DNA of 64,000 nucleotides, from positions 1,798,001 through 1,862,000 of the forward strand of contig JAPDRO010000003.1 in the NCBI GenBank assembly GCA_030247885.1, written 5' to 3'. The DNA is from Taxawa tesnikishii (nom. ined.) (Eukaryota > Ascomycota > Dothideomycetes > Dothideales). Below, piece after piece: positions 32,815 through 34,712 of the stretch. The notes under the pieces are model-generated. The model was not told where the DNA came from, did no database searches, and saw only the letters and a list, made by a program, of their open reading frames with translations. Made by a program: the position numbers and the translations under genes. Numbering within the stretch: position 1 is the first letter of the stretch; each line of letters opens with the position of its first letter.

Positions 32815-34256
32815 TTACACCTCAGCACCAAGGCTCTTGCGAGCTTTCTTCTCCTTCTTCTTGTCTTTCTTGGAACTGGCAGACACGCTCTGCGCCTGCG
32901 CCTGCTTTGGCGTCTCTGCAACCGGCGCCGGGGTTGAGACCGGAGCCTCTTCACCTGCTGGCTTAGCCTTGGCCGGCCTTCCCCTCTTCTTCTTCTCCGG
33001 CTCTCCGTCAGATTTGGCGGTGGGACCTTGCTTGCGCTTGAGGGTAGGACTCGATTCCTTCGTCTGCCCATTCACGGAAGTGAAGCCGCCGTTTGCTTTC
33101 GATTTAGATGCAGGCGTGGGCATGACGGGCGAAGAGTGCGCATCTGCTGCTTTGTTCTTGCGACGACCGGTCTTTGCTGGCGGCGGGGTTGGTGCTTTCG
33201 CAGGAACCTCGTCTTCGCTCTCGGACTCGCTGTCGGTGCTAGACTCCGATGTTGTAGAAGACGTGTCTGATTCTGCGCCGGCCTTCGCCTCCACGGCAGC
33301 ACCTGCAGTGCTAGCTACCTCCTCCTCATCGTCGTGGGCCTCTTCTTCCTCATCTCCCTGAGCATCAAGTAATCTCGCAAGCGCCTCACCTTCCTTTGCA
33401 GTATATTCCTTCATCTCTTTCTCGTAAAGATCCTTGGAGGCCTGGTACCGAGCTTTCCACTCCTGCGACCGGGTTAGCCGTTGTCGAGATCACGTTGTGG
33501 CTATAACAAGAGAGTAATACCTCCTTCGTCGAATCGGGCAATTCATTCCACCGCCTGGTAGCTTCAGCTGCAACATCTCCTCTTTTTGATCCTTTCCTAG
33601 CTCTGCGTTGATCTCCGGACGGACGCTTTGCAGGAAGAGGAAGTATGCGGTGAGCGGGCGTTTGGGTGCATTGGGATCCTTGGGCTTTGTCGTGTATTTG
33701 CGCTTCTGCTTTCCTTCTGGTTCGGGCTCGGCCTTCTCGACCTTGAGTGATGCGTCGCTCTGAGATCCTAGAATTCCGAGTTGACCAAGGATATCTAACC
33801 TGCTTGTGTCGAGTTGCCCCTCGCCGTTGAGAACAGAGTTGGTATGGTTGATATAGGCAGTGATCGTTTCCGTGATGGCGCCATTGAGTTTCATGTATGA
33901 TGTGACAAGCTGCAGGAGTCAGTGAGGTACTGTAGACTATGACAGGTAGTTGTATGGAAGCCGGATATTTTGCGATGACGACGCGACTGTTTACGCGACG
34001 CGACGCGATGACTGACGACAGCAACCAGTTGCACGCATCCTGTTCAGACTCTTGTATGTGTATTGAAGCGCTTCGAAGAGATGTGTATATGTGGATTGAA
34101 TGCGCAAGGAAGATTGCAATGCGCGCAAAGGAGGGAACTTACTGCATCTCTTGTGCGAACGAACTCGGCGCGGTCTACGGTAATCTGCGCCTGTTGCGCG
34201 GGCTCTTGCGCGGTCTTCTGTACAGACTCTCTTGCTGTCTGTTTGGTCCTGGCCAT
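32815..34256 (-). CDS. HMG-box chromatin protein with a histone H3-like N-terminus
   Basis: Three exons: 34256-34143, 33909-33521, 33462-32815, about 383 aa. Exon 1 starts MARTKQTARESVQKTAQ. Its first nine residues are those of histone H3, and its last codons (AEFVRTRDA) join LVTSYMKLNGAITETITAY, a helical N-terminal region seen in fungal HMG-box proteins. The HMG box follows: PKDPNAPKRPLTAYFLFLQ, RRWNELPDSTKE, EWKARYQASKDLYEKEM. The C-terminal half is acidic and then Lys/Pro-rich, with an AT-hook-like KKKRGRPAK and a basic tail KKDKKKEKKARK. It probably binds and bends DNA in chromatin. One base is missing in the TTTTT run at 33583-33587, inside the box. Splice sites are good (GTAAGT, GTATTA; branch GCTAAC). 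Confidence 0.88.
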
Positions 34257-34712
34257 GATCGCGTACTATTTGCGATGCCGTGTGAACAATATTTGACGGG
34301 AATGTCTGCGATACATGTGCGTGCAAGAGGGAGGGGAAAGCAAGGTTGCGACGTCGAGAATTCGGTTAGAAACCCCTGCTTCGACCAGCCACCGTTCTTG
34401 CCAATCACTGGGATTGATCTCACCAATTTCGGCCGCTAAATGCTTCTAATCTAACCAATTTGCTTCAGACGCTGCACAACCTACTTGGTGCAAGACACGA
34501 AGGAGACAATCGGGTACTCGAAAATAGAGTCAAAACAGTCCAATTAGGTCGAACAATCCCGTCCAATTTCAGTCCAGGGCGTCAGTGGTATCACACAATC
34601 CTAAACGCCATTTCCTAAAAGTCGATCCTCTGCCTTCAGCGGCACCAAATCGCAGAAGGCCTGCTGTGCACATAGCCTCTGCCCCATAGCGAGTCCACCT
34701 CAGCACAACAAA
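34257..34712. other. Intergenic
   Basis: Promoter of the HMG-box gene and 3' side of the zinc-ribbon gene. Nothing recognised. Confidence 0.45.

What the first reader, a model, noticed from the sequence alone, without database searches (positions are those of the whole stretch)
34143..34256. HMG-box protein whose N-terminus copies the histone H3 tail (MARTKQTAR)
Seen: the first exon of this HMG-box gene encodes MARTKQTARE, identical to histone H3 for the initiator Met and residues A1 to R8 (R2, T3, K4, Q5, T6 all present), diverging at K9 (Glu here). The downstream exons are a separate HMG-box protein, so this is not an H3 gene. Known: readers and writers such as PHD fingers, WDR5-type subunits and COMPASS recognise ARTK at a free N-terminus. 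Inference: this protein could be methylated like H3K4, or compete for H3K4 readers, as described for other histone mimics. Loss of K9 would leave only the K4 module.
Basis: partly seen in the sequence, partly recalled or inferred. Interest (0 to 1): 0.82.

Follow-up and report, generated by a model that had tools for sequence, protein, structure and literature searches.

The report
HMG-box protein with histone-H3-like start
A DNA-binding chromatin protein of a fungus begins with the same nine amino acids as histone H3, so it could pass for an H3 tail to enzymes that read or write marks there, but whether relatives keep this start could not be checked here.

Summary
Exon 1 (34256-34143, minus strand) encodes MARTKQTARES..., identical to H3 for Met plus A1-R8 and S10, with Glu at 9. 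By consensus splice signals it joins a protein with a divergent box A-like segment, a DPNAPKRPLT HMG box and a Lys-rich tail: best read as the Hmo1/HmbC-type HMGB protein, with no close paralogue. In the 29.4-Mb genome MARTKQTA is encoded at two places, this gene and canonical H3. Seven of eight codons differ synonymously from H3, so it is not a recent H3 fragment. Chance is about 1e-6 to 1e-3 per genome. Set1 N-SET, haspin, BIR and amine-oxidase/HMG (LSD1-like) genes are present. No orthologue could be fetched, so conservation, the decisive test, is untested. The intact part is the A1-K4 module, so the T3 (haspin/BIR) surface is kept as well as K4. The HMG box is split by a one-base frame break, probably an assembly error: the nearby glutamyl-tRNA synthetase gene has two breaks of the same kind. 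Functional mimicry about 0.5, coincidence about 0.35.

The parts
34143..34256 (-). Exon 1: MARTKQTARESVQKTAQEPAQQAQITVDRAEFVRTRDA; H3-identical Met + A1-R8, and S10
   Evidence: direct reading and splice signal; comparison with H3 of the same genome
34230..34256 (-). The nine codons that give the same residues as H3 (M + A1-R8); 7 of the 8 codons after Met differ synonymously from H3
33910..34142 (-). Intron 1 (233 bp): donor GTAAGT, branch-like CACTGAC, acceptor CTGCAG
   Evidence: sequence reading; inferred, no RNA data
33583..33909 (-). Exon 2, first part: box A-like segment (LVTSYMKLNGAITETITAYINHTN...) and first part of HMG box B (DPNAPKRPLTAYFLFLQSVRPEINAELGKDQK)
   Evidence: Pfam HMG_box positions 1-22, 20.5 bits, below the curated cut-off 25.4; PDB HMGB1 match; similarity to Hmo1 as recalled; coordinates
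33521..33583 (-). Exon 2, second part: rest of the HMG box (RGDVAAEATRRWNELPDSTKE) in another frame, overlapping the first part by one base
   Evidence: three-frame translation; aligns to Hmo1 box B when joined to exon 3; no Pfam hit for this 21-aa piece alone
33463..33520 (-). Intron 2 (58 bp): donor GTATTA, branch-like GCTAAC, acceptor CGCAG
   Evidence: sequence reading; inferred
32815..33462 (-). Exon 3 (215 codons and stop): end of the HMG box, acidic Ser-rich stretch, AT-hook-like KKRGRPAK, Lys-rich C-terminus
   Evidence: open frame; no Pfam hit over its cut-off; motif name recalled

Best explanation
This is the Hmo1/HmbC-type architectural HMG-box protein of a fungus, and its N-terminus carries a working copy of the first part of the histone H3 tail. 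The initiator Met before Ala should be removed as in H3, exposing A1-R2-T3-K4-Q5-T6-A7-R8 on a leader of some 33 residues ahead of the box A-like segment. H3 N-terminus binders (Set1/COMPASS, PHD fingers and other K4 readers, haspin, the BIR protein) could then dock on DNA coated by this protein, or be titrated away from nucleosomes. Shown: the sequence, its rarity in the genome, splice signals and homology for the gene model, and the presence of the enzyme genes. Inferred: Met removal, free amino end, modification, binding.
For: Nine-residue N-terminal identity plus S10, in the genome shared only with H3. Low chance. The carrier is a chromatin-type protein: HMG box and Hmo1-like order of box A, box B and Lys-rich tail. 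All 9 base differences from H3 over the 27 bases are synonymous. The start looks true: in-frame stop 4 codons upstream, A at -3 and G at +4, and exon 1 leads into the box A-like segment. H3-tail enzymes and readers are encoded: haspin, BIR, N-SET, amine oxidase plus HMG box. Precedents: Sgo1's histone H3-like AKER tail binds the Survivin BIR domain (PMC9253516, passages); SNAG domains mimic the H3 tail and recruit LSD1 (PMC12612597, passages).
Against: No orthologue seen, so conservation is untested. Similarity stops at residue 10 (2 identities in the next 21) and the following stretch is Gln/Ala/Glu-rich rather than basic. The leader's bias to A, Q, T and R raises the chance estimate about 500-fold over ordinary composition. 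At the MARTK level the genome shows little excess over its control (22 against 14 for MA[RS]TK). S. cerevisiae Hmo1 (recalled) lacks this start. The gene as assembled has a frame break in its HMG box. There are no expression or protein data.
Confidence: 0.5

Rival explanations
1. Coincidence. The N-terminus is a short, probably disordered stretch rich in A, R, K, T and Q. In one of many sequenced fungi it happens to spell the H3 start; it serves only as a leader.
For: Residues 2-30 are biased (A and Q 0.207 each, T 0.138); with that composition chance rises to 1.4e-3 per genome, and the scan that found it looked at many windows. The rest of exon 1 is not H3-like.
Against: With ordinary composition chance is 2.5e-6. 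0 of 11 other MARTK sites extend to Q. The carrier is an HMG-box protein, not a random one.
Confidence: 0.35
2. Old capture of H3 exon 1. H3's first exon here encodes exactly MARTKQTA plus the first base of R8, and the run of identity ends at R8. A duplicated H3 exon 1 may have landed ahead of an HMG gene. This concerns origin and is compatible with function.
For: H3 exon 1 is 25 nt and ends inside codon R8; the identity run ends at R8.
Against: 7 of 8 codons differ, so any capture is ancient. The 60 nt upstream of the two starts do not look alike (by eye, not aligned). S10 lies beyond the H3 exon.
Confidence: 0.1
3. Artefact. The gene is dead or wrongly read, so no protein with this N-terminus exists.
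For: A one-base frame break interrupts the HMG box.
Against: Exon 3 is open for 215 codons, against an old pseudogene. The glutamyl-tRNA synthetase gene in the same window has two breaks, each with the same one-base overlap of frames, pointing to small assembly errors. Exon 1 is unbroken.
Confidence: 0.05

Closest known systems
Hmo1 (S. cerevisiae) / HmbC (A. nidulans AN10103, F. fujikuroi FFUJ_00508; N. crassa NCU03126) / PaHMG4 (P. anserina)
   Same: Box A-like segment, canonical HMG box B after DPNAPK, Lys-rich C-terminus (against recalled Hmo1; domain layout from PMC4812653 passages; fungal names from passages)
   Different: H3-identical N-terminus; an acidic Ser-rich stretch and AT-hook-like motif before the Lys-rich end. 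The N-termini of the fungal HmbC proteins were not seen, so how far they differ is unknown.
Histone H3 (canonical gene of this genome, L002)
   Same: Met, A1-R8, S10
   Different: No histone family match; residue 9 is Glu; H3 residues 11-31 are matched at only 2 places
Shugoshin Sgo1 N-terminal tail (AKER) binding the Survivin BIR domain (PMC9253516, passages)
   Same: An Ala N-terminus that imitates H3 on a non-histone chromosomal protein
   Different: Sgo1 imitates with AKER; here eight residues are identical. Binding not tested here
SNAG domain of SNAIL1/GFI1 recruiting LSD1 (PMC12612597, passages)
   Same: H3-tail imitation on a DNA-binding protein
   Different: SNAG is not H3-identical in sequence (recalled); LSD1 recruitment not tested here
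Influenza NS1 and other viral histone mimics (recalled; PMC3510240 seen only as search listing and abstract start)
   Same: Short H3K4-like motif outside histones (recalled)
   Different: Viral and not at a free N-terminus (recalled); here the organism's own HMG-box protein

Membership tests
Hmo1/HmbC HMGB proteins | One canonical HMG box (box B) | tested here: met
   HMG_box model 1-22 at residues 120-141, 20.5 bits, under the cut-off 25.4 on its own; PDB HMGB1 match E 6.3e-7; the rest of the box aligns to recalled Hmo1 in the next frame. The box is split by a frame break.
Hmo1/HmbC HMGB proteins | Divergent box A ahead of box B | tested here: inconclusive
In phmmer of that Hmo1 against 7 strings from this genome the window pieces score 23.2 and 17.9 bits, L007 26.3 and L008 24.9; the main L007 and L008 alignments cover box B only.
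Hmo1/HmbC HMGB proteins | Lys-rich C-terminal extension | tested here: met
   SSKKDKKKEKKARKSLGAEV
Hmo1/HmbC HMGB proteins | Orthology by tree or synteny | not testable with these tools
   no fungal relatives held; Hmo1 not in the PDB sequences searched
Hmo1/HmbC HMGB proteins | DNA bending, linker-histone-like compaction | not testable with these tools
   needs the protein
Histone H3 | Histone fold | tested here: not met
   no histone family among Pfam hits (E up to 1) of the three pieces
Histone (H3K4/T3) mimic | H3-like peptide at the gene's N-terminus | tested here: met
   (start codon inferred, no RNA or protein data)
Histone (H3K4/T3) mimic | Peptide conserved in orthologues | not testable with these tools
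   scans of viral contigs and genome contigs found no relative
Histone (H3K4/T3) mimic | Modified or bound by H3-tail factors | not testable with these tools
   only the presence of such genes was shown
SNAG domain | SNAG consensus at the N-terminus (recalled) | not tested
   no model run for it

The most novel reading that the evidence does not exclude
An Hmo1-type, linker-histone-like HMG protein carries a genuine, selected H3K4/T3 tail module. It supplies a substitute H3 N-terminus on DNA that it occupies in place of, or beside, nucleosomes (for example rDNA), so that K4 writers and readers, or haspin and the BIR-containing passenger complex, can work there without H3.
Probability: 0.25. 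Interest if true: 0.85.

Novelty: new variant of a known kind. Interest (0 to 1): 0.6.

Why it matters
Histone mimics that I recall are mostly viral proteins, internal motifs or looser imitations. A cell's own DNA-architectural protein with eight residues identical to the H3 N-terminus would be a second, non-nucleosomal address for the H3K4 and H3T3 systems. It would also be a trap for ChIP work: antibodies to the H3 N-terminus, K4-methylated or T3-phosphorylated, could detect it (inference). The idea can be tested with peptides and one tagged strain.

Tried and rejected
Orthologues: the search for related loci on viral contigs and genome contigs and DNA patterns for the DPNAPK HMG motif (genome contigs; viral contigs) gave none; these collections are viral and prokaryotic, so absence says little. 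The genome has no relatives in the whole-genome set (note). The metagenome collection is capped at zero and was not used. Paralogue: the only hit outside the gene was an Nhp6-like locus, E 0.05, 29%. Of the 9 other HMG-box matches in the genome (read), none lies at one of the 22 MA[RS]TK sites. Recent H3 fragment: rejected by codons. Other H3 genes: of 8 histone-family matches, two adjacent exons look like a CENP-A-type variant whose reading starts MARTHTG, the rest are not H3 by eye apart from canonical H3. Hmo1 is not in the PDB sequences. Literature, search listings with abstract starts only: MARTKQTAR in 5 papers, none of whose titles or abstract starts concerns an HMG or fungal mimic; 1 paper; 25 of 212 listed; 15 of 37 listed; 0. 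No structure was predicted: the one attempt failed on coordinate order and was not repeated, because a single-sequence fold would not decide the question.

Full report
What is there. On the minus strand, exon 1 (34256-34143) reads MARTKQTARESVQKTAQEPAQQAQITVDRAEFVRTRDA and ends at a consensus donor (GTAAGT). A 233-bp intron ends CTGCAG, and exon 2 continues LVTSYMKLNGAITETITAYINHTNSVL... to DPNAPKRPLTAYFLFLQSVRPEINAELGKDQK. An in-frame stop lies 4 codons before the ATG; the start has A at -3 and G at +4.

How good is the match. The H3 gene of this genome, divergently placed from an H4 gene recognised from its sequence, encodes MARTKQTARKSTGGKAPRK.... The HMG protein equals it for Met plus A1-R8 and at S10, with Glu at 9; beyond that the tails part (11 of 31 over H3 1-31). 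MARTKQTA is encoded at 2 places in 29.4 Mb, this gene and H3, with 0 for the backwards control. All 22 places of the looser pattern (14 for its control) were translated: 9 are MASTK, 13 are MARTK, and of the 11 MARTK sites that are neither this gene nor H3 none continues with Q. The pattern without Met gave 3 places (control 1); the third is ASTKQTA just after a stop. Chance per genome is 2.5e-6 with ordinary composition and 1.4e-3 if the biased leader is taken as background (11,000 genes is my assumption). The scan that found it read many windows, so these numbers argue against coincidence without excluding it.

Origin. Nine of 27 bases differ between the two starts, all synonymously; 7 of the 8 codons after Met differ. 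It is not a recent piece of H3. H3's exon 1 here is 25 nt long and ends inside codon R8, where the run of identity ends. That would fit an old exon capture, but nothing else found here supports it. A CENP-A-like variant in the genome has a reading that starts MARTHTG (by eye).

The carrier. PDB and Pfam (20.5 bits against a cut-off of 25.4) place the start of an HMG box at about residues 117-141. Taken one at a time, the window pieces (23.2 and 17.9 bits) score a little below two other HMG loci (26.3 and 24.9), whose main alignments cover box B alone. With the Lys-rich end, Hmo1/HmbC is the best assignment but not a proven orthology. HmbC is given as the Hmo1p homologue of A. nidulans in PMC6483251 (passages) and as the orthologue in F. 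fujikuroi in PMC10454146 (passages). PMC4812653 (passages) describes yeast HMO1 as box A, box B and a Lys-rich tail acting as a linker histone. The gene has no close paralogue in the genome.

The frame break. The HMG box changes frame at about 33583-33590, beside a run of five A, with the two frames overlapping by one base; exon 3 is then open for 215 codons. In the same window the glutamyl-tRNA synthetase gene has its catalytic domain in one frame and its anticodon domain in another, with two shifts about 53 bases apart, each again a one-base overlap. A conserved housekeeping gene broken this way points to small assembly errors, and the HMG break is most simply another. Neither gene was mended. 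Exon 1 is unbroken.

How it may work. Recognition of the H3 start can rest on its first residues: in PMC5415848 (passages and part of a table) A1-K4 of the peptide pair with the BAZ2A PHD finger, R2A weakens binding beyond 1000 uM, T3A gives none, and an ARTK 4-mer still binds (100 uM). The same table shows that K4A does not weaken binding there and that the 10-mer itself binds at only 51 uM. K9 is lost here. T3 is kept, so haspin phosphorylation and BIR reading are as possible as K4 methylation. The genome holds haspin (2 matches), BIR (2 neighbouring matches), N-SET (1) and a gene with amine oxidase and HMG-box domains, LSD1-like. Two precedents show an H3-like tail docking a non-histone protein: Sgo1's AKER tail on Survivin (PMC9253516, passages) and SNAG domains on LSD1 (PMC12612597, passages). 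Met removal and a free amino end are inferred from the identity to H3.

Limits. The decisive test, conservation across related fungi, could not be run: searches found no relative in viral and prokaryotic collections, and no fungal genome but this one was at hand. The species is not determined. No paper naming such a protein was seen in the listings (open-licence PMC papers; two searches listed only part of their hits). I therefore put functional mimicry at about one half and rate the finding as an unusual candidate worth an early alignment and a peptide assay.

Noticed in passing
window about 33583-33590 (minus strand): One-base frame break in the middle of the HMG box, beside a run of five A; exon 3 stays open afterwards, so likely a small assembly error.
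   Followed up: partly
window about 22,586 and 22,639 (minus strand): Glutamyl-tRNA synthetase gene: catalytic and anticodon domains lie in different frames, with two apparent one-base breaks about 53 bases apart; suggests small indel errors in this assembly.
   Followed up: partly
L002 (G000:C32:845,125-848,147): Canonical H3 lies divergently beside H4; its first exon is only 25 nt and ends inside codon R8.
   Followed up: yes
L046/L050 (G000:C29 about 496,100-496,850): CENP-A-like H3 variant whose reading starts MARTHTGSSNMGRR, recognised by eye.
   Followed up: no
L010 and L011 (G000:C12 and C2): Two HMG-box genes on different contigs that look closely similar by eye.
   Followed up: no
L012 (G000:C34:174,064-174,204): Amine oxidase followed by an HMG box in one open frame, LSD1-like.
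   Followed up: partly
window 34266-34316 (minus strand): A 16-codon upstream open reading frame, in the same frame, ends at a TAG nine bases before the start codon; possible translational control if transcription starts upstream of it (sequence).
   Followed up: no
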